Positions 12,034 to 41,537 of a stretch of 64,000 bases of DNA are shown here, in pieces. The number at the start of each line of letters is the position of its first letter. The first letter of the stretch is position 1. The stretch is from Termitomyces sp. T153. Its lineage: Eukaryota; Basidiomycota; Agaricomycetes; Agaricales; Lyophyllaceae. Below the pieces are notes generated by a model. That model did not search any database, was not told the origin of the DNA, and worked only from the letters and a program-made list of their open reading frames with translations. The stretch lies in contig JACKQL020000064.1 in NCBI GenBank assembly GCA_018296165.2, positions 124,001 to 188,000 on the forward strand, read 5' to 3'. Position numbers and translations under genes: made by a program.

Positions 12034-12481
12034 TGTAAGGGCAATTTTTGGAGGCTGTGGCTCAATCACACAGCTGGCAAAGGGAAATTCAAAGTCTATT
12101 TAGTACTGTACAGTATTTACTGAGATAACTACTCACCTGGCAAAGGGAAATTCAAAGAAAACAAGTTTGGGAATTTTCTAGGCTAGATGTGATGCTTCAG
12201 AGGCTTCAGAAGCATGAGAAACAACTGTACAGTATAATAGAGAAAAAAAGACACAAGTGATGTGTCAGCAATTGGTCAGTAGTTACATAAGCCAGTGGCA
12301 GTGTCAAAGGGGCCACACTTGTCTGAATTATTGACAGAGAACCAGTGCAGCCTGAGGGCTGAAACTAGGACCAATAAATAGGGAAAAGGAAGGAGAATAA
12401 AGAAAAACTATAACAGAGCAAATCTGACAAGAACTGGAGAAGGAGAAGGAGAAGGGGAAACAAGTGAGACAGCCCCTGACA
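12034..12481 (-). repeat. 3' LTR of element A (448 bp)
   Basis: Matches 27034-27457 over its length. On the minus strand it begins TGTCAGGGGC and ends CCCTTACA. Differences from the other copy are mostly transitions, for example AATTTTTGG here against AACCTCTGG there. Confidence 0.95.
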
Positions 12482-15642: not shown

Positions 15643-16695
15643 TGTCAGGTTCCGCTGACCACGGGGGCTCAGCTACACTGGGTGAGTCCTTACTAGGTGA
15701 ACGTGATTCCCTGCACTGACAACCAAGCATTTGGAGGTGGTCCAAGCACTGGGGACTTGTGAGGATAGCCAGGGGAGATTGATCTGAGCAAGTTCAGGGA
15801 GGTCTGGAGGAGTAGAGGATGGGTTGCGGAGGAGGGGGACGGACTTGGCAGGGTTCAGGCATGAGTCCGTGTGTAGGTACTGCAGGTGTGGAGGAGGCGG
15901 AGGCTACACAGATGACAGGAGCAGAGCTGGAGTTCTGATGGGGGATCAACAGGGATTGATGGAGTTCAGAGCCAAGTGTATAGCAGGGTCCAGGGGTAGT
16001 AACAAGCATTGGTGGTTCATAATTGTAATTGCGGAGTTTGTGAGGACATTATGGTTGAGGACTTGAGCACAATAGACAGAATCAAATGGGATGAGGTGGA
16101 GTCAAACAAAATAGGATGAAGATGAGATGAAAACGAGAATAGATTCAGGTGGAGACATGGAATGATAACAAAAAGATAATGGAACAGAGATGAGATAAGA
16201 CCGGGAGACTGAGAGTAAGGAAAATGAAACACAAGACACAAAACACGAAACACAAGAAGGAACCAATCAGACCATAGGTAACATTAAGCAATATCAAGAC
16301 TAGAGTACGAAGAGCTACTCTATGTCTTATATACTGACTACTGAAGAGCTCCAGGGACATTGGCTGTGGTGGTGGGGCTTGGCAGAGCTTGACGGAGTCG
16401 ACGGGTGTTGGTTACAATCAGAGGGCGGGCCACGTTGATATGTTGATGGGATCAATTGCGATGTGGTCCGTTCCAAGGCTGTCATGATACTCCAGGGTAA
16501 GTCCAGGGGAAGCACTGGCAGCTGTGGGGAAGACATTGGAGTTGGCTAGGGGGCCGTCGGAGTTAACTGAGAAGGTGCCGGAGTTAGCTGGAGTAGGCAC
16601 AGAGTGCTGGGGAAGTTTGATGAAGCATCGGGGGGTTCTGGGGAAGTGGGGGTTTGTCGGGTGGTGTTTGGGGCTTCAGGGAATGGGTCATGACA
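15643..16695 (-). repeat. 3' LTR of element B (1053 bp)
   Basis: Aligns end to end with 21563-22614. On the plus strand it starts TGTCAGGTTCCGCTGACC and ends GGGTCATGACA. TATA and transcript-start motifs are present as in the 5' copy. Confidence 0.95.
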
Positions 16696-16708
16696 TCACC
16701 CCCCCTTC
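16696..16708 (-). other. Polypurine tract of element B
   Basis: Minus-strand GAAGGGGGGGTGA directly abuts the 3' LTR and is nearly identical to the tract of element C. Confidence 0.85.
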
Positions 16709-16959
16709 AGTGTCGAGACTCTCAAGATGCAGGGAGGCGGGTTGGGGATTGGCGGGGCGTGGGAGTCAAAGCCCAGTAATATTGATCAATCCACAGTGAG
16801 TGACAGCAGCATGGGAAGCAAAGTCAAAGCGTGGCTGCCACTGCATCAGGGGGTTCTTCCTAATCAATTAAAAGGCCCCGGGGCTCCTCAAATTCTTTGT
16901 CATGTCCCCCCCCCAGTTATTCAGCCGCTTCCCCTGCCCTGTTGATTTCAGACACAGAC

Positions 16960-18293
16960 ATGGTAATCATGTATGACAGCAAGGGGGAGGAGTTCGAGTG
17001 TTGGCGCCGAGCTGGTATGATGTACCGGAGTCGTGAGCAGCATTGACCTGTTTCTTTGGGGTGGCTGACAGGGTTCTACAGAGTCGTCCGTGGTGGTGGT
17101 GGGTTCTCTGGGGGTCCCTAGGCAGGCCAAATTTCATCCCACAGTGCCCCGATTGGTGGCGGGAGATGCGGAAGGGGTCCCTCCACTGCAGCAAATCCCT
17201 CAGGTGGAGGTGATGGCAGAGGAGTTTGCAAGGGTGTTGGCACAGGCTTGGGGCCCTCCAACGCTGGAATGGTGCCAAAACAAGGCCCTGGTGAGTCTTT
17301 TTGAGTTCTCTTTTGTTGCATGCACTGATCCGTTGTTCTCAGTGTGTTCTCTGTGCGTGGCGGGGCAAGGCCTGCATCTTTGATGCACCCTCTGTGGGTT
17401 CATGGCGTGATACTTCTGTTTGCCTCCCCTATCATGCAAACCACAAGAAGTGCTCAATCTCATTGGAGTGGCAAGCGGCGTGCATTGCCGCGGAGCAGGG
17501 GTGGGGTGAGGACTGGGTGCAGAGTCAGCTGGGTGAGGTGCAGAGGACCCGGATGTCGGGGGAGGCAAGCTTGGAGCGGTCTGTGGGGCAGATGGGGCCT
17601 CCGCGGGGTGGGCGGAGGGAGGGGGCATCCTCAGTGGCAGACCATGGGAAGCGGAGAGCTTCAACAGGTGAGGCAGGATTGAGATGCGGCGTGGGCAGAG
17701 AAGGAGGCATTGGAGCAGGCGTGGAACACCTTGGTGCAGGGGGCGCCGGAGCAAGTGTCGGAGGTACAGAGCTTGCGGGAGCGTCTGACGCAGCAGGAGG
17801 GGCGGCCCACAGAGGAGGCGGAGGAGTGGGAAATGGCACCGGAGGCTGGTCTGCTACGGGTGGAGTTGGAGGTAGCAAGGCGGAGGGAGGATTGGCTGGC
17901 CAACAAGGCCGCTTCAGGGCATGCGGGGATCCTTCGTAAGTGTTGTTCCCACTTCTCCACCTGTTACTAAACAGATCGTGTTTGGGACCAGGTTGGGTGC
18001 AGGAGCACCGGGTTCTCTTGGATGGTGCCTCCACGGCATTTGCATCAATTCAAGACAGGTTGGCGCAGATGCCTGGGGATCAGCCTCCAGAGTTGCAGCA
18101 GGGGATGGCGAGGATGGGGAGGTTGCTGGCGGGGCATTGACGGCGTAATGCAGTGGCCCCAGGGTCGTGGAGGGAAGTGGCAGCGGACGCAGGGGAGGCT
18201 TTGCTGGGGCTGGTGGAGGTCTTGGCGGTGGTGCAGGCCCAGATGGAGATTGATTTGGGGGTAGGGATGGCGGAGGTTCTGGGGGAAGAGTGA
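16960..18293 (+). CDS. Antisense Cys/His-motif protein carried by element B
   Basis: Spliced gene opposite in strand to the element. I recognise no characterised family. Putative exon 1 starts MVIMYDSKGEEFECWRRAGM; after an intron comes PQVEVMAEEFARVLAQAWG, then GPPTLEWCQNKAL. A clear GTGAGT...CAG intron (about 17291-17340) leads to CVLCAWRGKACIFDAP, DTSVCLPYHANHKKCSISLE and WQAACIAAEQGWGEDWVQSQ. So there is a CxxC...C...C...H..H..C pattern that could bind zinc. A basic/Ser-rich linker, a Glu/Leu-rich helical segment (SEVQSLRERLTQQEGRPTEE), another intron, and WVQEHRVLLDGASTAFASIQ follow, ending GMAEVLGEE. The same protein is found in element C with the same introns and order. Flaws: an in-frame TGA at 18138-18140 and an unresolved frame change near 17680. 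Probably recently intact. Confidence 0.6.
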
Positions 18294-21562: not shown

Positions 21563-22614
21563 TGTCAGGTTCCGCTGACCATGGGGGCTCAGCTACACTG
21601 GGCGAGTCCTTACTAGGCGAACATGATTCCCTGCACTGACAACCAAGCATTTGGAGGTGGTCCAAGCACTGGGGACTTGTGAGGATAGCCAGGGGAGATT
21701 GATCCAAGCAAGTCCAGGGAGGTCCGGAGGAGTAGAGGATGAGTTGTGGGGGAGGGGGACAGACTTGGCAGGGTTCAGGCATGAGTCCGTGTGTAGGTAC
21801 TGCGGGTGCGGAGGAGGCAGAGGCTACACGGATGACAGGAGCAGAGCTGGAGTTCTGATGGGGGACCAACAGGGATTGATGGGGTTTGGAGCTGAGTGTA
21901 TAGCAGGGTCCAGGGGTGGTAACAAGCATTGGTGGTTCATAATTGTAATTGCAAGTTCATGAGGACGTTACGGTCAAGGACTTGAGCACAATAGACAGAA
22001 TCAAACGGGATGAGGCAGAGTCAAACGAAATAGGACAAAGACAAGATGAAAACGAGAATAGATTCAGGTGGAGACATGGAATGATAACAAAAAGATAACG
22101 GAACAGAGATGAGATAAGACTGGGAGACTGAGAGTAAGGAAAACGAAACACAAGACACGAAACACGAAACACAAGAAGGAACCAATCAGACCATAGGTAA
22201 CATTAAGCAATATCAAGACTAGAGTATGAAGAGCTACTCTATGTCTTATATACTGACTACTGAAGAGCTCCAGGGACATTGGCTGTGGTGGTGGGGCTTG
22301 GCAGAGCTTGACGGAGTCGACGGGTGTTGGTTACAATCAGAGGGCGGGCCATGCTGATATGTTGATGGGATCAATTGCGATGTGGTCCGTTTTAAGGCTG
22401 TCATGATACTCCAGGGTAAGTCCAGGGGAAGCACCAGCAGCTGTGGGGAAGACATCGGAGTTGGCCAGGGGGCTGTCAGAGTTAACCAAGAAGGTGCCAG
22501 AGTTAGCCAGAGTAGGCGCGGAGTGCTGGGGAAGTTTGACAAAGCGTTGGGGGGTTCTGGGGAAGCGGGGTTTTGTTGGGCAGTGTTTGGGGCTTCAGGG
22601 AATGGGTCGTGACA
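21563..22614 (-). repeat. 5' LTR of element B (1052 bp)
   Basis: Pairs with 15643-16695. On the minus strand, TATATAA lies at 22252-22246 and the inferred transcript start AGTCTTGATATT at 22220-22209. Many differences from the 3' copy are at CpG sites. Confidence 0.95.
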
Positions 22615-22619
22615 GCTCC

Positions 22620-25600
22620 CACTGCCATGCAGTATCCTTAACTGTGAGGTTAAAGAGGGGTTGTGCATGGTGGGAGAGATCATGTATGAACCTCCAATAG
22701 AAATTGACAAACCCAAGAAAGGCCTGAACTTCCTTCTTGTTCCTTGGCTTAGGCCACTCTGCTACACCTGCTACTTTGATAGAGTACATCTCAGCTGTTC
22801 CATGCAAAATAACAAACTCAGGTACTCCACTTTAGTCTGTTCAAATTTGCACTTCTCAGGCTTTAAATAGAGCTGGTGTTGGCGGAGGTGTTCCAAGACC
22901 ATGCATGTAACTCAGTGATGCTCTTCCAGAGTTCTTGTGTAGATGAGGATATCATCAAGATACATGCAGACAACACCTTCCACAATCAGATCACAGAAAA
23001 TGTCATTCATCATAGTCTGGGAGGTGGCTGGACTATTGGTGAGACCAAAGAACATTACCAGAGGTTCAAAAAGTCCATGATTAGTTTGGAATGCTGCTTT
23101 CCACTTATCCCCTTCTTTGATGCATACATTGTTGTAGCCTCAGTGGACATCCAACTTTGTGAAATAGTGTGCACCTCAAAGATTGTTGACAAGTTCTGAG
23201 ATAAGTAGCAAAGGATAGTGGTTCTTCACTGTCATTGCATTCAGGACACAATAATCCTGAACCAGATGAAGAGACCTGTCCTTCTTCTTAATAAAGAAGA
23301 CTGGGGAGGCCATTGGAGACTTGGAGGGTCATATTCATCCTGAGCTAAGATTCTCCTGCAGGAAAGTGTCCAGTATAGTACTGGGTTAGAGTAATACTGA
23401 TAGTTCTGGGGCTTTCTTGAAGACTTAGGCAGTCTACTCCAATTTCACACTGATGTCTTAATAAATGCTTGAAGTTGAAGGGGTTTACTTCCAAAATATT
23501 TCTATTCTGAATGCAGAGAGGTCTCAACAAACTCCAGCCTAAGTGATTCACTCCCTGGGAACCACCAAGCCTTTGCCTATTAATTGCCTGTCCATTTGCT
23601 ACTCTACTTGGGCTATTTATACCTCTTTCTACAGTGCACAGACCACCCCCTACATGTGACTTTTGGTTCCATACTTTCCAGCTCCTTATTCATAACTGTT
23701 ATTCTAATTCCCCCTTTTGGCATGCTTGTTTCAATGCTACAGGCCAGTTCCTGGTTCCATCATTCCTCCTTTGCATTCTTAGCTTCTATTTGCCCCATTT
23801 ATCTTTCCCTCCTTTGTATTTCTTCCATTCATATTCTTCCCCATTCAGTTTCTTCCCTTCTTCTTCCTTTATTTATTCCATATTCTTCCCCATTCAGGTT
23901 CTTTCCCATTCAGGTTCTTTCATTCATCTGTCCCCTCCCATTCATTCCATTCATCTTCCTTTATTCATTTCATATTTTTCCCCTTTCAGGTTCTTTCCCA
24001 TTCAGGTTCTTCCATTCATCTTCCTTTTCCTTCCCTTTATTCCATTCATTTCATATTCTTCCATTCATCTTCCTTTCCCTTCCCTTCATTCCATTCTTTC
24101 TCATTGATTCCCCCTTTATCTCCTTTCAGTCAACATTCCAATCTGGTTATTCTTAGATCAGATCTAGATCTTGCCAGAATTGATACCACTCAGGTGCTTT
24201 TGCCAGTCCCATGCTTCCCCTCCCATTACAGTGATTGGACTATTATTGAGTGTATAGTCTAGTATAGTCCTTGTCCTATCCTGTTCTGTATTTCTTCTGA
24301 TGTATTTAAAGGGATAATGTTGCTGGAACTTGTTCTACCAGGAGGCTTACAGTTTTCAGCCTTAATAAATGTTTGTTTTGACTTCTGGTGTTTATTATAT
24401 TCCCAATGGTGTGACAACATCATATCACCAGCTTGTCCTGTTTATGGGGTGCAAGTGGATAGACCTTGCAGCTGGAGGGCTCCACATCTGGTATCAGCTC
24501 AATTGCATGATTCCACTGCTTGTGCTCTGGAAGTGAATCAAAGGAGGCCTTGGAGAATACATCCTCAAAGTTATGGAGGTGATTAGGAACAGTGCTATAG
24601 AAAGGCTTGGGCTGTGAGTTTGCTGCAAATGCCTCAGCCAGATGCTGAGAAGTCATCTGACTGGCCCAAATCTCTGCCACTGTAGGAGGGGGGCAGAGGG
24701 TTGTAGCATAGATCTGATCACCCACCTCTATAGTCTCATCTAGGGACTCTGCATCTGGAGTATGGGTCCATTTTCCTTCACCTTCCTCTTCCTCTGGAGA
24801 TTCATGCCCAACACCTCAGGCATCCTTGTAGAGGGCCTCTTTATGAGGGAATACCAGAGGGGAGGGACTCAGGAGGTCAAGATCAGCATAAGGGAGATGC
24901 CCAGTGTGACAGGCATGTACAGCAGCATGCTCATAAACTTTGGCTCTCTGCTCTTTACAGGCTTCTTCTGCACAGGTAACACAGTGACATGGGCAATGAC
25001 TCATCTTCATCTCACCCTTAGTCCAGTCAATCTCTGGGTTGTGCTCACATAGCCAGGTGAACCCCAAGATCATGTCTTGCTTTTCCAAACTAGTGATGGC
25101 AAAGGCAGCTCACTCTGAGTGGTCTTAGTAGCAGAGGAACAGGTCCACTATAAAGCAAATAGAGCCAGCTTCATTGAGCATGCCATCAACATTGTATATA
25201 GGGATAGGATGAGAAAGGGGGCAAGTGGTCAGGCAGTGTCATTGCATGTAGTCAGTGTCAAGGAAGAGGCCTGTTGCACCACTGTCAAGGAGGGCAACCA
25301 CACTTCAGATCTGTTGGGTATCCATTGTCTCAATTTCCACCTGTAGCTTCAGGGAGTTGGTAAAAGGAGTGGAAGCAACAACATAACAATGGGGGAGGCA
25401 GCATTCCCATGCAGGGATCCAAAGGTGTGGGCTAGGGAGTGTGTTTCCAGCTGAGACTTTAGCTGAAGGGGGAGTTTGTACATCTGAGGAGGGGCTTATT
25501 GTTTTAGGCACAGTATCAACAATGGCAACAGATATATTTGATTCTATGGACAGGGGGGTGAAATGATTAGTACTGGGCAATGGGGGCATACTGGTCATCC
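22620..25600 (-). pseudogene. Element A protease and reverse transcriptase (degenerate)
   Basis: Minus strand. Protease region near 25088-24830: KQDMILGFTWLCEHNPEIDW with TKGEMKMSHCP. Start of reverse transcriptase: LHNFEDVFSKASFDSLPEHK and HAIELIPDVEP at about 24600-24450. After a 1 kb insert it continues [20 protein letters not shown], then [60 protein letters not shown] and the catalytic box [13 protein letters not shown] near 22930, then the thumb region FLGFVNFYWRFIHDLSHHAQ up to element B. Stops are frequent. Confidence 0.88.
23365..24418. mobile_element. 1 kb insertion with pyrimidine-rich repeats inside element A reverse transcriptase
   Basis: The frame DKLVI...DTFLQENL of reverse transcriptase is split by about 1,050 bases of foreign sequence; exact borders are uncertain and I found no clear target duplication. 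Between roughly 23750 and 24130 the plus strand is almost pure C and T, built of repeats such as TTCCCATTCAGGTTCTT and TTCCATTCATCTTCCTT. To its right there is a TATTTAAA box and AATAAA signals, so a solo LTR or a non-autonomous element is possible. Confidence 0.5.
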
Positions 25601-27033: not shown

Positions 27034-27457
27034 TATAAGGGCAACCTCTGGAGGCTGTGGCTCAATCACACAGCTGGCAAAGGGAAATCTAAAGTCTATT
27101 CAGTACTGTATAGTGTCTACTGAGATAACTACTCACCTGGCAAAGGGAAATCCAAAGAGAATAAGTCTGGAGATTCTCTAGGCCAGGTGTGATGCTTCAG
27201 AGGCTTCAGAAGCATGAGAAACAACTGTACAGTATAACAGAGAAAAAAGACACAAGTGATGTGTCAGCAATTGGTCAGCAGTTACATAAGCCAGTGGCAG
27301 TGTCAAAGGGGCCACACTTGTCTGAATTATTGACAGAGAACTGGTGCAGCCTGAGAGACCAATAGATAGGGAAAAGGAAGGAGAATAAAGGAAAACTGAG
27401 CAAATCTAATAAGAACTGGAGAAGGAGAAGGGGAAACAAGTGAGATGTCCCCTGACA
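27034..27457 (-). repeat. 5' LTR of element A (424 bp)
   Basis: Pairs with 12034-12481. Followed by target-site copy GTCCA at 27458-27462. The plus-strand phrase CTGGCAAAGGGAAA occurs twice within it. Confidence 0.95.
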
Positions 27458-30398: not shown

Positions 30399-33000
30399 AT
30401 GTCTGCGTATAACCCCATGTACAATCCTGCCAGCTACTTAACTGATGTCTATAGTTGACCAGTACCTGAAAATCCCTATGCCCCATTCTATCCAGGCCCC
30501 TCTGCAGATCAGTACGTCGTTTGTCACTGGACCCCTGACTCCAACCAGGCATTCTATGCCCCTTCCATTGGCCAGGGAATACCTCCGGGCTGGCACTTCC
30601 CCCCCACATTCTCTACTGATGGCAACAATCCCTGTATGTACCCTGGAGGATACTCCGCAGTGCCCCCTAACTCCACCTATCCTCCCCCCACCCACTATTA
30701 TGCATACCTAGTCCCCACTGCAGCCCCAGCCCCTCTAGAGCCCATGGATAATTACTCTCTCCCTTGTCTACCATTCTCCACTCAAGTTTCCCCTTCCCCC
30801 AGGCAGCAAAGGGTTAAAGCCTATATCCAACAATGTGATAAAGTTCTCCACTTCCTCCACCTCTCTCCCATGGAGTTTGCAAGATGCGCCTGCACCCTCC
30901 TCACCAACCTAAGCTACCCTGACACCTCCACAACTCTGGAAGTCTGGGTGGATCATTTCCTTAACTTCCATGAGCACTATCTGCAAGGAAACCTCCTGGA
31001 GACTATGCAAGGCACCCTGGGTATTGACAATAACTTATGGAACAAGCTCTGCGCATTGGTTGAAGAAATCCACACCAGCCTAAACCCCCACCCCTTCAAA
31101 GATCCTCTAAACCCCACCTGCTCCTTCCATGTGCAATGCAAGAAACTTGTCAAAACGCAAAGCAAAGCCCTGCTTCCTATTCCCCATCAGCAGAAAGAAC
31201 TCAATGTGGCCTTCAGCATCTTAAGGAACCTTAACCTCACAGGGGGATTGTTTGACCAACCAGCTGCTCATACCTTGGCCCTCTCCACTTGTTTCTGGGC
31301 CAACTCTGTTCCCAGTGCCTTCCAAACCTGGGACCAGCCCACCGTCCCTGAACTCCGCTCCCAATGGCCACCCCCATGCATTGACGATGACAACTGGACT
31401 CTTTTCTATGTTGACAAGGCTGGTAACCCCACTAATGAGCACGCCCCATGCAATAGCCCCCCATGAGACTGACCCCCCCACTTCAATCTCCACGCCCCCT
31501 ATGTCAACACCCCTCTGTCCTGCTCCAATGCCCCAGTTCCCCTGCAACAGCCCATGGGCCCTGGAGTGCCCCAACCACCCTTTTCCACCAACCCCCCTCA
31601 TCCCCCACCTGCTCTGGTGCCTAACCCTCTCGCCAACACAAATTACTTTGGACCCCCTACCCCCAGAAGACCCCCTCCCCCTCAATGGGCCCCGGGGCCT
31701 GCCCTAGGCAGCATGGGCCAACCCCCCAGCAGAGGACCACCCAACAGCAGACCCCCTGGAGGATGGGGCCCAGCCATGGACAACTTCCCCCCCCAGCAGA
31801 GAAACAGAAACAACTACTATTACTACTACAATGCCAGACCCCTGCCCCAAGCTCAAAACTTACAGGACAATACTTGCAACACACTGGCCTGGGAAGGTAA
31901 ACATGACATTCAGAAGCCTGAACCCTTCACTAGCCACAACCCCCAGAAGTGGCAAATCTTCCTAACTCAGTGTCTGACTATGTTCTAAGCTAAGCTGATT
32001 ACCTTCCAACTTGAGAGCTCATGAGTAGCCTTCACCATGTTGTATTTACAGAGTATTGCCTTCAATCACTACACTGCACTACTCTGGTTTAATCCCAACA
32101 ACCCTGTGCTCTCCAATTGGCTTGCTTTCACCCAGAAATTCTTGAGTAAGTTTGGCATCTTTGACACTGTAGCAGAGGCAGAGAAAAACCTCTTCAACCT
32201 CTGAATGTGTGACAACAAACACTTCATGACCTTTATCATACGATTCAAATGGGAAGCCTACAAGACTGGCTGGAACTACAATGCTCTCTGGTTTGCTCTC
32301 CATTATGCCCTGCCTCAATGGATCAAGGACATCCTTTGCCTTGCACCTAAGCAAACCACCTACAATGGGTACAAGGTGCTCATTACCTAGGTTGACCAAC
32401 ATTACTGGGAAAATCACAGCAAAAACACGGTGCCCTGGACCCCTTGGAATACCTCCAGTAATACCAACTGGCAGGCTGGAGCAACCAACAGCATTTGACC
32501 CTCAATCCCCACCAACTCCACCAACCCTGCACCCCGTTTTTCTCTGGGCCAAGGAACTACTAGCACCAATTGACCCCCGGGACAACATCCACCTGCCCAG
32601 CTCAACACTGCTGACCTCCATGAAACCTCAGAGCCCCTGGATGCCAATCCTAATGACCACAACAACATTCTGGACCCTACCAATGACCAAGAAGCCTTAT
32701 GCGCAAATAGGATCTGGGATAGCCCATGGATCAATGTGCCAGAGGAAACTCAGGAGAAATGATGGAAGGAGGGTGCATGCATCCTATGTAGTGAGCAGGG
32801 ACACTTTATTCACAGTTGTCCTGAACAACAGGTGATGGGATGTGCCATGTGGATGATTGTCAGAGAAGACTGTGACTACTAGTTTACAGAAAATGAGTCA
32901 GTAGTTTATGTCTTGAAGACACACTAGACCATGGACCAGACCCTGACATTTTCTCCACTCTGGCCACACTTCTCTGCACAACGATACTCACTCCAGACAA
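30399..33000 (+). pseudogene. Element C gag (degenerate)
   Basis: Starts MSAYNPMYNPASYLTDVYS, then a TAG. It continues with a Pro/Tyr-rich N-terminus, a helical segment (RVKAYIQQCDKVLHFLHLSP), a long Pro-rich linker, and a capsid domain (HYTALLWFNPNNPVLSNWLA, then FTQKFLSKFGIFDTVAEAE). A nucleocapsid zinc knuckle CILCSEQGHFIHSC lies at 32778-32819. Several stops break it. The particle-forming role follows from the family. Confidence 0.85.
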
Positions 33001-36000
33001 CCTTCCAGCACACCTCCCCTCCCATTCCTCCACCAACTTTCTTCTTTACACCACTCTTTCCTTCACCAACAACTCCATCCCCACATTAGTTGACAGTGGC
33101 ACCACTAATAACTTCATTGATGAGTCTCTGGTGGTGCTTGCTCCCCACCCCCTCCAATGCCTCCCCATCTTGATTCTCCTCAAACTCTTTGATGGAGACC
33201 CCACCCCAGCAGGAGACATCACACACTGCCTGTAAATGACCATGACTTTTTCCAACAGATGACAGCAAGAACTCTGACTACTTGTCACAAAACTACACCT
33301 CTCCACCCCTGTTGTCTTAGAGTTCTCATAGCTCCACTCCACCAACTCCTGCGTTGACTGGCCCAGCCTCACCCTCCACCTCAACTGGGACAACCCCACC
33401 AACTCCAGGCTGATACCTTTTGATATCTCACTCTCCTCCAAGAACTCCAAGACCACAATCAACCACCCTCAGACTCCTCTGCAGCTCTGCTCCAGGTCCA
33501 CACGGTCATTTGTCATCAATGTCTGACTTGACAGCTTGTCCGAGGTATTTTCCACCCTTGTCAACAGTAGTGCCTCCAGCACCTTCATCAGCAGTCAACT
33601 TAACCTCTGATGCAATGACCTCGACAAACCCCTTGAGCTCCAACTCTTTGACAGCAGCTCCACCATGACCAGAATCACTCAATACTATGACAACACCCTC
33701 ACCCTCAACAATGGCCTGCAGTTTCAGGCCTGGCTCCTTGTCATCTAACTATCTCTGTTGACTCTGATTGTGCTCAGACTCCTGTGGCTGCAAGACATCA
33801 ACCCTGACATTGACTGGAAGAACCTCACCATGTGATTCTCCAGCCCCAAAGCAAGTTTAGCGGCTGCCATTCCCCTCTGCCTCTAGTCTATCTTGGGCTC
33901 TGACATCTCCCACCCTGGTGCCAGCACTTCCAGAGCAACCCAAAGCCCCTCAACTGCCAATGGCAACTCCGATGGAGAAGGAAGCACAACTCCACCTCAG
34001 TCACCCTCAATCAAATTATAATGGCTGCCTCCCAACATATCTTGGAATCGATACAAAGGCCTGTGGTACCCTGACCAGCAATGCTCAAAACCCCCAACTA
34101 ACTCCACCACCACTCTGGGCTTGACCGCTACCACCCCAACATCCAACTCTGTCAACTCCAGAAGCCTCAACATTAAAATCATCAGCACCATCCCCTTTGC
34201 ATGCATTCTACAAGATGGCACCCCCACCTTCCAGTTACAAATCATGCCAGCCCTACCAGAAGAGCACCTCCACATAGGAACCACTGTGCCAGAGAGCAAA
34301 ATGGAAGAACAGATCCTATCTGAAGTAGTTCCCCCAGAGTATTATGAGTTTGCTGACATGTTCTCTGAAGGGAGTGCCAAAGAACAACCCTGCACCACTC
34401 CTATGACCACAAGATTGACCTTGAAGAAGGTACCTCACCTCCATTTGGCAAGATCTACAACATGTCTGAGATTGAGCTCTGAGCCCTGAAGGAATACCTC
34501 AACAACATGCTTGACAAGAGTTTCATATGCCCGTCAATCTCCACCACTGATGCTCCAGTCCTGTTTGCCAAGAAGAAGGACAGGTCACTCCAGCTCTGTG
34601 TGGATTATTGGGGGCTCAACAAAGTCACCAAAAAGAACCAGTATCCCCTCCCCTTGATTGGAGACCTTGTTAATTATCTCCACAGTGCCAAGATCTACAT
34701 AAAGATAGACCTCTGCTCCAGCTACAACAATGTCCAGATCACTCTGGGACATGAATGGAAGACCGCCTTTCACACCTGCTATGGCCTCTTTGAGTACCTC
34801 ATAATGTTCTTTGGATACTCTCCTGCCACTTTCCAGTACTTCATAAATGATATCTTCTATGACATGAATGATATTTTCGTTATTGTGTATCTGGATGACA
34901 TTCTGATCTACTCAAATTTGCCAGCAGAGCATCTGGAGCATATCCACTGCATCTTGGAACAACTCCAGGAGTATCACCTCCATGCTAAACCTAAGAAGTG
35001 CTCCTTTCACATAATGGAGGTTGAATACCTTGGGATCATTGTCACCCCCAACGGCATGCACATAGACCCTGCCAAGGTTAATGCAATACTTAACTGGCCC
35101 CTGCCATGGAACATCAAGGAGGTACAGTCATTCCTGGAGTTTGCTAACTTTTATTGCCATTTCATTGACAACTACTCCAGAATCACCAAACTCCTCAACC
35201 GACTCACATGGAAGGACACCCCTTGGGATTGGGACAGCAAGTGCCAGAGTGTATTCCTCCTCCTGAAGAAGGCCTTCACCTCCACCCTGGTCCTCCACCA
35301 TTTTGACCCCTCCCTGCCGATTGTGCTCAAATGTGATGCCTCTAACTATGCTATCGCTGAGATACTCTCCCAGTTGGACTCCAGGAGCAAGGATCTCTGT
35401 CCCATTGCCTTCTACACCCAATCAATAATTCCTGTGGAACTCAACTATGACATCTACAACAAAGAACTCCTCATGATTGTTGAAGCCTTCTGTCAGTAGT
35501 GGGCCTATCTCAAGGGATCCCCACACTGCATCCAAGTCTACTCCAACCACAACAACCTGCAATACTTCATGACTATGAAACAGCTCAGACACTGCCAAGC
35601 TCAATGGTCCAAAACCCTCTCAGAGTATGACTTCACCATCCACTATTGCCCTGGGCAACTCAGCACAAAGCCCGATGCCCTTACTCAAAGGTCCAACATG
35701 TATCTGAAGAAGTCATTCAAAGCCAAACAGAATGCATTCAACCATGGAGTGGTAATCCCCTCCAAACATCTACATGCTGTGCTAATTTTAAATGAAGAAG
35801 GAATCCTCCAGCAAATCAGGAATTCACTCCCAGACTCCTACTTCACCCAGCATGACCCCCACAACAACCCTGATGAGTTGAGCACTAAGAATCCTTTTTT
35901 ACTGTCTCTGGACCACTGCCTCCTGCTCTGGAGTGGACAAATTTATGCTCTGGACTACAAGTCCATCCGCCTCAACATACTCCAGCAACACCACAACTCC

Positions 36001-37282
36001 AGCTCTGGGGGCACCCAAGAATTTGTAAGACCCTTCAACTCATCTTCCAGACTTACTTTTGGCCAAGAATGAAGAAGGATGTCACACAATACATAAGGGC
36101 CTGCAAACCTTGTCTCTAGGCCAAGGTACTCTGCCACTGCCCCCACAGATTATTGAAACCCCTCCCTGTCAGCCACCACTCCTGGTTCTCCCTATCAATG
36201 GATCATATCATTGAACTCCCTGACTCCAAAGGTTTCAACATGATCCTCATCATCATTTGCTGCCTCACCAAACAAGCCCTCTTCATCCCCTGCCACACCA
36301 CTGACAATGCTCCAGAGTTTGCCAAACTGTTCCTTGAGCATGTATTCTCCAAGCATGGACTACCAGATGACATCGTCTCCAACTGTGGACCCCTGTTTGT
36401 ATCCCAATTTTAGCAATCACTATGCAAGGCACTCAAAATCAAAACCAGCCTCTTCACTGCCTATCACCTAGAGACTGACAGACAAACAGAACAAGTAAAC
36501 CAGATGCTGCAGCAGTATCTCCACCTATATGTTAACTATTTACAGAATGACTGGCACACATAACTCTCCCTTGCTGAATTTACCTACAACATGCCCCACT
36601 CCACCCCCAGAGTCTCCCCCTTCTATGCCAACAAAGGCTACAACCCCCAACTCACCCTATCCCTAAAAGACATCTCCTCTCATGTTGCCCACAAGGTTGC
36701 TGAGGACCTCCGATCCCTTCACCAGTTCCTCTGGGATGAGATAAACAATGCCAATCAAGCCTACTCCAAATATGCTGATGCCCAACACAACTCTACCCCC
36801 AACTGGCCCCCCAGCACCTTAGTTTGGCTTGATCAATGCAACCTCAAGACTTGGAGGCCCTCCATCAAACTAGACCACAAATGTCTTGGTCCTTTCAAAG
36901 TCCTCTAGAAAGTCTTCATGCATGCCTACAAACTCAACCTACTTCCAGGCTTGAAAGGCCTCCACCCTGTATTCCACATTTGACTCCTTGAAAAACATGC
37001 CCTGGACCTCTTTTCTAGCCAATGCTCTGACCAACCACCCCTCATCAAAGTTGAAGACAAGTACCACTATGAGGTTGACCAAATCCTCAACTCCCACGTG
37101 GTTCACAGGCAACCCCAGTACTGAGTCCACTGAAAGGGCTATGGACCTGAGGATGACATGTGGGAACCCCAAAAAAACCTTGATGGAGCCCCTGACAAAC
37201 TCCAGGACTTCTATTGACAACACTCCACCAAGCTCTGGGACCCCCAGGACTAGCAAGTACAGATGGCATCAGTGGGTGTAAC
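33001..37282 (+). pseudogene. Element C pol: protease, RT, RNase H, integrase, chromodomain (degenerate)
   Basis: Protease active site TLVDSGTTNNFIDESL near 33085. Reverse transcriptase from 34507: APVLFAKKKDRSLQLCVDY, GLNKVTKKNQYPLPLIGDLV, KIDLCSSYNNVQI, YSPATFQYFINDIF and the catalytic box [13 protein letters not shown] near 34890. RNase H: VLKCDASNYAIAEILSQLDS. Integrase: MDHIIELPDSKGFNMILIII near 36200, then HGLPDDIVSNCGPLFVSQF, TAYHLETDRQTEQVNQMLQQ and FTYNMPHSTPRVSPFYANKG. A chromodomain closes it (YHYEVDQILNSHVVHRQPQY, stop, VHWKGYGPEDDMWEPQ) near 37050-37180. One 330-codon frame (34507-35499) is still open. At least six stops occur downstream. Confidence 0.92.
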
Positions 37283-37476: not shown

Positions 37477-39090
37477 CTACTCCTCCTCCTCCTCTGACTC
37501 CACCTCTGCTATCCTCCCCACCAGATCCACCTCCAGTTGTGCTACTACCATTGCCAGAATTTTGGGATGCCCTGGAAGCAGCTCCACTATGTCCATTGCT
37601 ACCTCCCACCACACTCCAGGATCCACCATCGCCCTCCGCTGATGCCCTGCTAGCAAATGCCCCATCTGTGTGACCTCCTGCCCCAACTCCAGTGGAAGAT
37701 CCCTGGGCATCCTCACCAACCTGTTGTGGATGGACCTCAGTGCTGCTGATGCTCTGTCAAGGAGGATGCAGTGCTCCCTGGCCCAATCTGCAGAAATCAG
37801 CTTGTAGAAAATGGGAAATAAAGGAAGCACTTACAGAGCACTCCCTGCTGCCCCAAGGCTGCCTTGTTGGCAAGTTACTCTTCCCACTGCTGCGCCCTCT
37901 CCGCTGTTGCTTGGGTCACTGCTGCACTGGGCCCCCACTGAGTCCTCCACACCCCTGACTGCTGCTCTGCTGCCTCCACCCACACCTTTAACAGCCTCAT
38001 ACATACTCACAGCTCTTGAAGCTGCGACAATTGTTCCATGGTGGTCCCCATGGCAATGTCCTTATCTCTACACACCAAGTTCCATTCCCTCTAAGCTCTG
38101 TCCAGCTACCTTTAAAACCCATCCCTCTCCTCCCCCATCCTACAAGCTTCCTCCCCACATGTGGCCAATGACCACTCCAACTCCTCCACCTGATGCTGCA
38201 GGAAAGCCTCAGTGGCTGACCACAACCCTCTCGCAGACTGCTCAACTAAGGCCCCAGAGATTGGGGGATACACCATGGGACCCAGAGGGCCTGCCATCGC
38301 CAGCTCCCCCTGTGCCTGCTTGCTAGGCCCTGCCTCCGGTGAGGAGGATGCCCTCCACTTACCCTTGTCACATGTCGTGGGGGCCCCCTCCCTCCATCCA
38401 CCCTGTGGGGGCCCAACTTTCATTGGGGGCCACTCCATGCCAACTCTCCCCTCTACCCCAGAACCCTGCTCTGACATCCTACCCCTTCGACCCTCCTCCA
38501 ACTGCACTATGACCCACTCACAGTCCCACTCCTGCTCTGCCTTGATGCAAGCAGCATGCCAACTCAGAGTGACAGAGCACTTCTTGTGCTGCAAGTGACA
38601 CAGGAGACACACTGATGTGTCCCACTACACTCCTAGCACAGGCTCCTCAAACTTGCACTGTTCACCCCACCAGGTACAGGACATGCACTAGAGACATGGG
38701 TTAGCTTGATAAGGAAGGGACATGCCAATGATGCACCAGGGCCACCGCCTGACACCACTCTAATGTTAGGGGACCTCTTGCCTGCCCTGCGGCCTCTGCA
38801 AAAAGCTCTGGCATCACATCTGCCTGCATGACTCTCAATCTCATAGGAATGGAGTGGACCACTCCAGGGCTAATACCAGGCCTGGAATGAGAAGCAGGGA
38901 CCGATTCTGCCACCGACTGTGCTGGGGCCTCCCCCAACAAAAGCCCTGAGGGGCCTGCCACCGCCACCAACAACTCTGATGGGACTTAATCAGCACTCTG
39001 TCCATGACAAGTAAGGGATGGCACTTACAACTATGGTACATTGCCTAGACCCACTTATGGTCCTGCCAATCCTCAGAGTCCTCAGAGGAA
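37477..39090 (-). pseudogene. Antisense Cys/His-motif gene of element C (degenerate)
   Basis: Homologue of the antisense gene of element B, lying between the chromodomain end and the 3' LTR and converging on pol. Minus-strand reading: EDWQDHKWV, stop, AMYHSC before a GTAAGT donor; ARGPLTLEWCQAVAL; then CMSCTWWGEQCKFEEP, a stop, DTSVCLLCHLQHKKCSVTLS and WHAACIKAEQEWDCEWVIVQ; then WSATEAFLQHQVEELEWSLA; then DWAREHCILLDRASAALRSI and ending AEVESEEEEE. Cys, His and intron places agree with B. The homology continues upstream of the start (AWELKSSNIDQ against AWESKPSNIDQ), so a promoter may be shared as well. Confidence 0.62.
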
Positions 39091-39351
39091 GAAATTGAGG
39101 TATGTGCTGAGGGGGATGGGAACACTGCTAGAGAGTACATGGAGGACAACATTGGGAAAGTTTGGGAACTCCGGAGTACGTCTGACCCTTTTTAATGACT
39201 TGGGAGAAACCCCCTGATGAGCAGCGGCCATGCTTCAACTTCATTTCCCATGCTGCTGCTGCTACTGCAGTCTGATCAATATTGCTTGACTTCAATTCCC
39301 ATGCCCTGCTAATCCCCAAACTGTGCCTCACATCTCAAGGGTCTCAATGCT

Positions 39352-39364: not shown

Positions 39365-41537
39365 TGTCACGACCCACTCCCTAGACCCCGACATTGTCTC
39401 CAGTCCTCCCCAATGCTCTGCCAAACTCCCCCAACCCTCATCCACCCTCCATGCCCATTCTGGGTAACTCTGACACTTCCTCGGCAAACCCCAACAGCTT
39501 CCTGATCAATTCTAACACCTTCTCCACAGCCGTTAACACATCCCCTAAATTCCCCTGAACTCCTGAGACTTTTCCCACCACTCCTGACCATGTCACACAA
39601 CCCCGATCCCCCACCCTAATTCCCCTGACCTGCTGGGGAGCACCCCAATGACCCAGGAGCAACCTGCTTTCCAGTTGATCCCATCAGAATGTTGCTGCAG
39701 CCCACTCTATGATTGCACCTGACACCTGTTGACTCCGCACAGCTCTGTCGAGCCCCACTGCCATATCCTCTGCCCTCCAGAGCCACCCAGTAGTCAGTAT
39801 ATAAGTTGTAGAGCAACTCCTGGTACTTTAGTCTTGATATTGCATTTACTGGTTTCCTATGTCTCATCTTTTGTCTCATCTCAGTTTCTATTTTTAGTTT
39901 CAAATCTATCTCTTTTCTCTGTCTCATCTCGCCTTGTCTCTGTCTCATCTCGACTGTGTATATTTCCTTTGTTTCCCTAAGTTCCTTTCTTCTCCAATGT
40001 CAGCACAAACTCTGCGCATGTGCTATGACCCAAACATTCTTATGACAACTCTGGACCTCACTCCTTGCTCAGCCCCAGAACCCATCAAGCCTTAGTGATC
40101 CCTCTTCAAACTCTGACTCTGCCCCCATCAACTGCAAAGTCTCTGCTTACCCTGCAGTCTATTTGTGTGCCCATGAACTTGTTCCTGATGCCCACCCAGG
40201 TTTGATGTCTAATATACTTGGTCTTAGACTCCTCTGGACCCATCAGGTTCTGCTGACCATGGGGGCTCAACTACACTGGGTAAGTCCTTATCAGGCAGAT
40301 GTGATTCTCTGCACTGACAACTGAGCACTCGGAGGTGTTCCAAACACTGGGGACTTGTGAGGATAGTTAGTGGGAATTGATCTGAGCAAGTCTGGGGAGG
40401 TCTGGAGGAGTAGAGGATGGGTTGCAGGGAAGGGGGATGGGCTTGGCGGGGTTCAGGCATAAGTCTGTATGTGAGTATTGCAGGTGCAGAGGAGGCAGAG
40501 GCTATGCAAATGATGGGAGCGGAGCCAGAGTTCTGATGGGGGATCAACAGGGATTGATAGGGTTTGGAGCCGAGCATGTAGTGAGGTCCAGGGTTGGTGA
40601 AGGAGTGTTGGAGGTTCGTAATTGTAATTATGGAGTTTGTGAGGGCATTATAGTTAGAAGGACTTGAACATGATAGACAGAATCAAACGAGATGAGATGG
40701 AGTCAAATGAAATGAGACAGAGATGAGACAAGAACGAGAATAGATTCAGGCAGAGACATGGAACAATAACAAAATGACAATGGAATAGAAACAAGACAAG
40801 ACTGGGAGACTGAGAATAAGGAAAATGAGACATGGAACATGAAACACAGGAAGAAACAATCAGAAACACATCAGGTAAGGCAGGTAATCTCAAGACTAGA
40901 GCATGAAGAGCTACTCTATGTCTTATATACTGACTACTGGAGAGCTCCAGGAATGTCGGCTGTGGCAGTGGGGCTTGGCAGAGCTCAACAGAGTTGACAG
41001 GTGTCAGTTACAACCAGAGGGTGGGCTGCATTGATATGTTGATGGGATCAATCATTGACATGGGCCATTCCGAGGTCATTGTGATACTCCAAGGCAAGTC
41101 GGAGGAATCAGGGTGTCAAGACAATGACATGTAATGGGGTCAGGCATGATAGGGGAGTGGTCCCAGTGGCTCAGGAGATCCAGGAAAAGCGCCGGCAGCT
41201 GCAGGGAAGATGTCAGAGTTGGCCAGGGGGCCATCAGAGTTAGCCAAGAATGTGTCAGAGTTAGCCAGAGTAGGTGTGGAGTGCTGGGGAAGTTTGACAG
41301 AGCATTAGGGGAGGTTCTGGGGGGATGGGGGTTTGTTGCATGATGTATGGGGGTCCAGGGAACGGGTCATGACAGGACCATTCCAGACTTGCTTGGACTG
41401 CCTCCCCTAGCTCCTCTTCGCAAGTCTCTTCACTCTGCACCAACCCCAGGATGCTAGGTTATAAGCGCAGGGCATCACATCTGCCTAGTAAGGATTTGCC
41501 AGTGTAGCTGAGCCCCTGTCATCAGCAGAACCTGACA
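39365..41537 (+). repeat. 3' LTR of element C, split by solo LTR F
   Basis: Starts TGTCACGACC, matches 29345-30366 up to 40240, and resumes at 41375 to end CAGAACCTGACA. Without F and one target copy it is about 1,033 bases, close to the 1,022 of the 5' copy. Confidence 0.92.
40241..41374 (-). repeat. Solo LTR F (B family, 1134 bp)
   Basis: Diverged copy of the element B LTR inside the right LTR of C, with target duplication GGACC at 40236-40240 and 41375-41379. Its outer end reads CATCAGG instead of TGTCAGG, and it has about 80 extra bases near 41100-41180 relative to B. No internal region, so it is a solo LTR. Its priming motif has decayed (AATCTCAAGACT). Confidence 0.88.

What the first reader, a model, noticed from the sequence alone, without database searches (positions are those of the whole stretch)
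16960..18293. Spliced antisense gene with a conserved Cys/His motif carried by two different chromovirus-type elements
Elements B and C each hold, between the integrase end (or its former place) and the 3' LTR, a multi-exon gene on the opposite strand. Both copies keep W..CQ..AL, intron, CxxC....G..C.F..P, DTSVCL.CH..HKKCS, AACI.AEQ.W...WV..QL, a helical segment, a phase-1 intron, W..EH..LLD.AS.A..SI..RL..MP, and an acidic end. Cysteines, histidines and intron places agree although the DNA has diverged, which suggests selection on the protein. I know of extra antisense frames in some plant LTR elements, but not of a characterised protein of this type. It may bind nucleic acid, regulate the element, or act on the host. 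This is the best candidate here for an undescribed system.
Basis: partly seen in the sequence, partly recalled or inferred. Interest (0 to 1): 0.78.

Follow-up and report, generated by a model that had tools for sequence, protein, structure and literature searches.

The report
Antisense gene in mushroom retrotransposons
Retrotransposons in the genome of a termite-farmed mushroom carry a hidden, spliced gene on their opposite strand whose protein has been kept under selection and looks like a nuclear DNA-binding regulator, so these elements may encode their own control protein.

Summary
Confirmed, and larger than reported. The gene lies on the window + strand (about 16,902-18,293) beside the 3' LTR of element B; the second copy on the - strand (about 39,152-37,480) in element C. 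Both are decayed members of a multicopy family. An intact copy elsewhere in the genome (L041) has four exons, three short GT-AG introns and a 514-aa protein. Hits listed by three protein searches are all Termitomyces 'hypothetical proteins'. C and E elements have Ty3/Gypsy pol, with a chromodomain shown in C. B and D elements have paired LTRs but no detectable pol, yet keep the gene; D lacks the Cys cluster. In-frame dN/dS for E-E and E-C pairs is 0.19-0.39 (0.13-0.22 without CpG changes), against 0.8-2.9 in other frames: a selected protein gene. Within B the signal is weak. The Cys spacing (C-x2-C-x6-C-x15-C-x2-C-x6-C) equals that of fungal Zn2Cys6 factors, but Pfam's cut-off is not reached (best seen 18.5 of 21 bits). 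A basic nuclear-signal-like stretch and long predicted helices follow. Best reading: a retrotransposon-encoded nuclear regulator, a new family of the known antisense 'aORF-3R' kind. Function and expression are untested.

The parts
15643..16701 (.). LTR of element B next to the antisense gene (3' LTR in the sense of the element, which runs on the - strand)
   Evidence: direct repeat with 21563-22620, 93.1% identical
16778..16788 (+). conserved AATATTGATCA between LTR and gene; candidate promoter or binding element
   Evidence: same place in 33 of 34 distinct copies of subfamilies B, C, D and E; in the 5 E copies it is part of a perfect 18-nt palindrome
16902..17032 (+). exon 0 of antisense gene, element B copy (frame shifted by an extra C after the ATG; first in-frame Met at 16960)
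   Evidence: alignment of 21 copies; exon model from L015 and L041
17082..17290 (+). exon 1 (ends EWCQ..A), element B copy; intron 0 = 17033-17081
17343..17935 (+). exon 2 (Cys cluster with one Cys changed to Tyr, basic stretch, helical part); about 200 bp missing relative to most copies; intron 1 = 17291-17342
17992..18293 (+). exon 3 (W..EH..LLD.AS..., acidic end) with a premature TGA; intron 2 = 17936-17991
21563..22620 (.). other LTR of element B
30459..31466 (+). gag-like reading frame of element C (63% identical to a frame of E element C306; no Pfam match for this piece at E<0.1)
34483..35499 (+). reverse transcriptase of element C
   Evidence: RVT_1 4.6e-24
35500..36072 (+). RNase H part of element C
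   Evidence: open frame; 75% identical over its first 119 residues to C306
36984..37250 (+). chromodomain at the end of pol of element C (with stops)
   Evidence: Chromo 3.2e-11, stops read as X
37480..37785 (-). exon 3 of antisense gene, element C copy
   Evidence: tblastn to L041 exon 3 (L029)
37836..38687 (-). exon 2 of antisense gene, element C copy (all six cluster Cys present, one stop inside the cluster loop)
38740..38973 (-). exon 1 of antisense gene, element C copy
39030..39152 (-). exon 0 of antisense gene, element C copy
39273..39283 (-). conserved AATATTGATCA upstream of the gene in element C

Best explanation
A Ty3/Gypsy chromovirus lineage of Termitomyces carries, between integrase and 3' LTR and on the opposite strand, a real four-exon protein gene of about 470-514 codons. 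Shown here: the gene model, its position, its presence in element families with and without pol, and purifying selection on the protein in E-E, E-C and D-D comparisons. Inferred: the transcript starts in or just inside the 3' LTR on the antisense strand, is spliced by the host, and yields a nuclear protein with a zinc cluster (Zn2Cys6-like spacing plus a conserved His and a seventh Cys), a bipartite-NLS-like stretch (KGKRRASPSPEAGPSKRAR), long helices that could dimerise, and a conserved helical C-terminal domain with an acidic end. Most likely it binds DNA of its own element (LTR or LTR-gene spacer) and regulates transcription or counters silencing there. It would thus work like retroviral antisense regulators or TE-encoded anti-silencing proteins without being homologous to them. 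Non-autonomous B and D families could borrow gag-pol in trans but carry this gene, and in D it is under selection, which points to a product that helps the element carrying it. D, without the Cys cluster, may be a modulator or antagonist.
For: L041 (E type) reads as one intact 514-aa protein with introns of 51, 49 and 51 nt; the annotated Termitomyces J132 protein P0054 shows the same junctions. Against L041, 4 E and 4 C copies: in-frame dN/dS 0.19-0.39 (0.125-0.215 after dropping codons with CpG differences), against 0.79-1.69 in the other two frames (0.97-2.93 non-CpG) and 0.47-1.37 in LTR pseudo-frames (0.54-1.54 non-CpG); introns 47-52% identical against 68-70% for CDS in E-C pairs. D-D (3 pairs): 0.31-0.40 in frame against 0.64-1.33 in the other frames; non-CpG 0.18 against 1.42 and 1.16 in the one pair with enough changes. 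Own-genome search: 30 of the 54 rows that span residues 1-392 or 1-393 of the 393-aa query have no stop (105 of 2389 candidates scored, best first). E element C306: LTR pair 97% over 786 nt, gag, protease, RT, RNase H and integrase on the other strand. B: 0 of 12 elements with paired LTRs has a pol match inside; D: 0 of 1. Six-Cys pattern in 60 of 234 proteins held, many of them fragments; 46 of 70 that cover the region; spacing 2-6-15-2-6 in 59 of the 60. Basic block K.R[AV][SF]...SK in 176 of 234, with five or more K/R in 113. Zn_clus is the weak Pfam match of 8 of 10 cluster-bearing proteins. Short helices sit at the two CxxC motifs, and helices 273-331 and 337-367 are mostly of high confidence.
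Against: No expression data. Pfam Zn_clus stays below its cut-off of 21 bits in every protein whose score I saw (10.6-18.5 bits, best E 0.0022), and the matches align half-clusters of 13-23 residues, not the whole domain. Both AlphaFold models are poor overall (mean pLDDT 58-59) and the second gives the cluster about 40. No meaningful fold match. No enrichment of paired CGG half-sites in the E LTR plus spacer (best z 2.3 in 48 tests). D has no Cys cluster yet is under selection, so the cluster is not essential to every role. For D the non-coding pseudo-frames go down to 0.42-0.45, not far above the in-frame 0.31-0.40, so the D result rests mainly on the frame contrast and on one pair. Within B the signal is weak: non-CpG 0.50 in frame against 0.67 and 0.95; all changes 0.47 against 0.80 and 0.57, with spacer pseudo-frames 0.51-0.65. 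The nuclear signal is my reading, not a predictor's.
Confidence: 0.55

Rival explanations
1. A real, selected antisense protein gene, but the protein does not act as a DNA-binding regulator: it could be a particle or Gag partner, an RNA chaperone, or a factor aimed at host proteins, with the Cys region as a structural zinc site.
For: Zn_clus cut-off not met in any protein whose score was seen; a conserved His and a seventh conserved Cys lie outside the Zn2Cys6 pattern; D lacks the cluster but is still under selection; most of the invariant columns over B, D and E members lie in the C-terminal helical part.
Against: Basic NLS-like block in 176 of 234 proteins; six-Cys spacing as in Zn2Cys6 factors; long helices follow, as in many dimeric factors (recalled).
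Confidence: 0.27
2. The antisense transcript, not the protein, is the agent (double-stranded RNA or small RNAs that regulate the sense transcript).
For: Discussed for other antisense genes of LTR elements (PMC7264820, passages read).
Against: Selection acts on codons: third positions change most and in-frame dN/dS is far below the other frames (with less power); introns diverge more than exons. This does not exclude an added RNA role.
Confidence: 0.07
3. A captured host gene that rides along (transduction) with no role in the element.
For: Introns that are antisense to the genomic RNA would not be spliced out during retrotransposition, so a captured host gene could keep them (inference); the origin is unknown.
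Against: Present beside the LTR in four diverged element families; B with D and C with E group the same way by LTR and by protein, so it has probably been inherited with the element for long; under selection; no relative outside Termitomyces 'hypothetical proteins' among the listed hits.
Confidence: 0.08
4. Similarity is only nucleotide homology of non-coding DNA; the reading frames are chance.
For: The window copies themselves are broken.
Against: Intact full-length frames with matching splice sites, annotated proteins of four Termitomyces genomes, dN/dS in frame far below the other frames.
Confidence: 0.02

Closest known systems
Antisense additional ORFs between pol and 3' LTR (aORF-3R) of plant LTR elements: maize Grande gene23, rice RIRE2, Silene Retand, bean PvRetro13
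   Same: Same place and strand; Grande GENE23 is nuclear and is transcribed from a promoter upstream of it (PMC7264820, passages read)
   Different: Here in a basidiomycete chromovirus lineage, with three introns, a zinc-cluster-like domain, measured purifying selection, and presence in pol-less families. Sequence relation not tested: their sequences were not at hand
brtn of Boty / BcGypsy1 in Botrytis cinerea (Zhao et al. 2011; that paper not read, known from citing papers PMC7264820, PMC8365987 and PMC4227169, passages read)
   Same: Antisense additional gene in a fungal element whose gag-pol has a chromodomain
   Different: Ascomycete; not compared by sequence; no domain of brtn reported in the passages I read
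Fungal Zn2Cys6 (GAL4-type) transcription factors, Pfam PF00172
   Same: Cys spacing within the recalled range, short helices at both CxxC motifs in one model, basic block and long helices after the cluster, weak Zn_clus matches
   Different: Below Pfam's cut-off; extra conserved His and Cys; flanking conserved helices; no fold match
HTLV-1 HBZ (recalled; an antisense promoter inside the HTLV 3' LTR is mentioned in PMC7264820)
   Same: Antisense, spliced, next to the 3' LTR, nuclear regulator with a helical dimerisation part (HBZ traits recalled; presumed here)
   Different: HBZ is a bZIP protein; no bZIP family among the Pfam matches
VANC anti-silencing proteins of Arabidopsis VANDAL elements (start of abstracts in a search listing only: PMC5735166, PMC10398659)
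   Same: TE-encoded protein that binds its own family's DNA and counters silencing (proposed here only)
   Different: DNA transposons (recalled); the role is shown there and only proposed here

Membership tests
aORF-3R (antisense additional ORF between pol and 3' LTR) | position between pol and 3' LTR, antisense to gag-pol | tested here: met
   element C of the window and E element C306
aORF-3R (antisense additional ORF between pol and 3' LTR) | present in most copies of a family, not a one-off capture | tested here: inconclusive
   copies were fetched by the gene, so copies lacking it were not sought
aORF-3R (antisense additional ORF between pol and 3' LTR) | antisense transcription | not testable with these tools
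   no RNA data
aORF-3R (antisense additional ORF between pol and 3' LTR) | sequence relation to Grande gene23, Retand, PvRetro13 or brtn proteins | not tested
   sequences not at hand
Zn2Cys6 (PF00172) | C-x2-C-x6-C-x(5-16)-C-x2-C-x(6-8)-C (range recalled) | tested here: met
   60 of 234 proteins held match (many are fragments); 46 of 70 that cover the region; spacing 2-6-15-2-6 in 59 of the 60. The 24 misses, listed, are Cys changes or missing pieces. D members lack the region
Zn2Cys6 (PF00172) | Pfam gathering score reached | tested here: not met
   10.6-18.5 bits against 21 in the proteins whose scores were shown
Zn2Cys6 (PF00172) | two-zinc cluster fold | tested here: inconclusive
   short helices at both CxxC in one low-confidence model; no fold match
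Zn2Cys6 (PF00172) | zinc and DNA binding | not testable with these tools
   needs bench work
Chromovirus (Ty3/Gypsy with chromodomain) | RT and chromodomain in pol of element C | tested here: met
   RVT_1 4.6e-24, Chromo 3.2e-11
Chromovirus (Ty3/Gypsy with chromodomain) | RT, integrase and chromodomain in pol of E element C306 | tested here: inconclusive
   RT, RNase H, integrase H2C2 and rve found; its chromodomain was not tested apart
Chromovirus (Ty3/Gypsy with chromodomain) | pol present in element B of the finding | tested here: not met
   0 of 12 B elements with paired LTRs, window copy included, has a match to the pol of element C inside at E 1e-5
HBZ-type antisense bZIP factor | bZIP domain | tested here: not met
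   no bZIP family among the Pfam matches

The most novel reading that the evidence does not exclude
Pol-less families B and D have kept, as their only recognised protein gene (in D under measured selection), a family-specific nuclear factor that licenses or protects the carrier's own LTR. D, which has lost the zinc cluster but keeps the helical and C-terminal parts, would be an evolved antagonist or decoy of the full-length factor. That would be a regulatory contest between autonomous and non-autonomous retrotransposons, fought with antisense-encoded proteins.
Probability: 0.2. Interest if true: 0.82.

Novelty: new variant of a known kind. Interest (0 to 1): 0.6.

Why it matters
Antisense genes of LTR elements are known but their functions are not (PMC7264820, passages read). 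Here is a family with many copies (some 270 scored candidates over four queries, not checked for overlap), intact members, clear purifying selection, a testable zinc-cluster-like domain, and a natural domain-deletion relative (D). It makes the question whether retrotransposons encode their own antisense regulators testable in a fungus, and the pol-less carriers test whether such a protein acts for the element that carries it.

Tried and rejected
Telomere idea: several contigs begin at a similar distance from an E or D gene; one contig start read (C112) looks like the start of an LTR, so assembly breaks in repeats are likely; the other starts were not read. Non-coding homology: rejected. CGG half-site pairs in L041 LTR plus spacer: nothing beyond the noise of 48 tests. 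Solved structures by sequence: none with one sequence; three chance-level hits with a profile. Fold searches: only generic long-helix matches; two chance-level rows for the second model. Relatives outside Termitomyces: none among the rows listed in three searches (120 of 130, 120 of 128 and 89 of 89). Those searches need shared 5-residue words, and searches scored only the best 7996 and 7992 candidates, so distant families may be missed. Within-B selection used 15 of 21 aligned sequences (window copy, L021 and L022 left out for the exon-2 gap, L013, L024 and L028 for larger gaps): weak. One search gave 8 of 20 fetched B loci, 4 C, 4 E and 4 D against L041 with protein-guided alignment, which leans towards low dN (B 0.26-0.33, D 0.30-0.36); one search repeats E and C with nucleotide alignment. 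A first pattern for the basic block gave 0 because it was one residue off; one search repeats it.

Full report
What is there. The window is part of a 72.4-Mb assembly. Its closest named relatives by protein are Termitomyces (the P0001 protein of Termitomyces sp. T112 is 96% identical to the L015 query piece; T112 lies in Agaricales, Lyophyllaceae). The second copy is on the - strand at about 39,152-37,480, inside element C, whose pol with RT and chromodomain runs on +.

The gene model. Relatives were fetched from the same genome (20 stretches of about 10 kb, plus loci from searches). In L015 the exons are 130, 209, 790 and 302 nt with introns of 49, 50 and 56 nt, phases 1, 0, 1, and one stop at the first junction. 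In L041 the same four exons give an uninterrupted 514-aa protein with introns of 51, 49 and 51 nt, all GT-AG. The annotated protein of Termitomyces J132 (P0054) shows the same junctions; P0001 of T112 uses another donor at the first intron. Exons 0 to 3 are each found in C-type loci L029-L032 (exon 2 of L032 in two pieces) and E-type loci L033-L036 (exon 1 of L035 in two pieces). The window copies are broken: B by a frame shift after the ATG, a Cys-to-Tyr change, a gap of about 200 bp and a premature stop; C by 6 stops among 464 aligned codons.

Selection. With L041 as reference and nucleotide alignment, in-frame dN/dS was 0.347, 0.385, 0.370 and 0.194 for E copies L033-L036, and 0.248, 0.236, 0.217 and 0.268 for C copies L029-L032; the pairs share one reference and are not independent. 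Leaving out codons with a CpG difference gave 0.125-0.215. The other two frames gave 0.79-1.69 (all) and 0.97-2.93 (non-CpG). LTR pseudo-frames gave 0.47-1.37 (all) and 0.54-1.54 (non-CpG). In E-C pairs introns were 47-52% identical and coding sequence 68-70%. Three D pairs gave 0.31-0.40 in frame against 0.64-1.33 in the other frames; in the one pair with enough non-CpG changes, 0.18 against 1.42 and 1.16; D non-coding pseudo-frames ranged from 0.42 to 2.15. Fifteen B copies compared with each other gave only 0.50 (non-CpG) against 0.67 and 0.95, and 0.47 against 0.80 and 0.57 with all changes; non-coding pseudo-frames were 0.51-0.83 (all). This fits B copies being mostly relics that decay after insertion, with some older constraint. 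CpG sites account for much of the difference between copies: dropping codons with a CpG difference took the differences between L041 and L033 from 147 to 62.

Which elements carry it. Four subfamilies appear. E and C: C306 is a near-whole E element (LTR pair 97% over 786 nt, the far LTR ending at the contig end) with gag, protease, RT, RNase H and integrase opposite to the gene; its RT is 77% identical to that of window element C. B and D: 12 B elements with paired LTRs of about 1.1 kb have no pol match between the LTRs, and neither has the one D element read in full length (LTRs 97.6% identical, 6.1 kb). B and D LTRs match over nearly their whole length at 70-71%, as C and E do at 68% over 881 columns, while B or D against E or C matches only in part. 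The proteins group alike: the D proteins I looked at are 58-66% identical to the B query where they overlap (P0026, P0036, P0040, P0084) and 37-39% to the E protein (P0026, P0040, P0084). So the gene has probably been inherited with the element since before these families split. D proteins lack the Cys region. In a search of the own genome with the E protein, 30 of the 54 rows that span the query have no stop; these frames read through the last intron (only the best 105 of 2389 candidates were scored, so the sample leans to intact copies).

The protein. The rows listed by three searches are all Termitomyces hypothetical proteins without a precomputed Pfam domain (limits in Tried and rejected). 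Of 70 proteins that cover the region, 46 keep six Cys in the spacing 2-6-n-2-6; n is 15 in 59 of the 60 proteins with the full pattern. A His before the last Cys (90% or more) and a seventh Cys after it (invariant) are conserved too. The spacing is that of fungal Zn2Cys6 clusters, but Pfam's Zn_clus is matched only weakly: 8 of 20 members at E<1 and, in a second set chosen to hold the cluster, 8 of 10, with 10.6-18.5 bits against a cut-off of 21. The matches cover half the domain each. AlphaFold (mean pLDDT 58) puts short helices at both CxxC motifs and long, mostly confident helices at 273-331 and 337-367, then a helical C-terminal part. A second model was poorer at the cluster. The block KGKRRASPSPEAGPSKRAR looks like a bipartite nuclear signal (my reading); a pattern for it matches 176 of 234 proteins, 113 of them with five or more K/R.

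A conserved 11-mer, AATATTGATCA, lies between LTR and gene in 33 of 34 distinct copies (L038 lacks it), in all four subfamilies; in the 5 E copies it is part of the perfect palindrome TTGATCAATATTGATCAA. It has no CpG, so CpG decay would spare it; I treat it as a candidate promoter or binding site only.

Comparison. [quoted passage not shown] Zhao et al. 2011 not read). PMC7264820 states that no clear similarity to other proteins had been described for them, that one is nuclear, one has an SMC domain, and that functions are unknown. I found no description of this Termitomyces family in the searches, which cover only an open-licence library and of which I saw listings and the passages named. 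I therefore file it as a new variant of a known kind. It is not filed as a Zn2Cys6 factor, since the curated cut-off is not met; that it works like one is a separate, open claim.

Confidence. That it is a real, spliced, selected antisense protein gene: about 0.95 (splicing is inferred from sequence, not from RNA). That it is a nuclear DNA-binding regulator of its own element: about 0.55.

Noticed in passing
window 40241-41375: A B-type solo LTR (83% to the B LTR over 300 nt) sits inside the 3' LTR of element C, splitting it; a nested insertion.
   Followed up: partly
window 12036-12453 and 27036-27435: Repeat pair about 15 kb apart, probably the LTRs of a third element (A), with element B and other retroelement pieces between them.
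   Followed up: no
G000 contigs C112, C241, C289, C109, C181, C10; C32, C39, C52, C85, C98, C256: Contigs begin at similar distances from an E-type or D-type antisense gene. One start read (C112) looks like an LTR start, so assembly breaks at near-identical repeats are likely.
   Followed up: partly
L009-L028, gene region: B copies differ largely at CpG sites, consistent with CpG decay of old repeats; methylation was not tested.
   Followed up: partly
L041 and other E-type rows: Many E-type genes are free of stops, and L041 is CpG-rich, so this family was probably active recently in this host.
   Followed up: partly
P0036, P0231 (proteins): Some public gene models join the antisense gene to neighbouring protease-like retroelement sequence, an annotation artefact to watch for in Termitomyces proteomes.
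   Followed up: no
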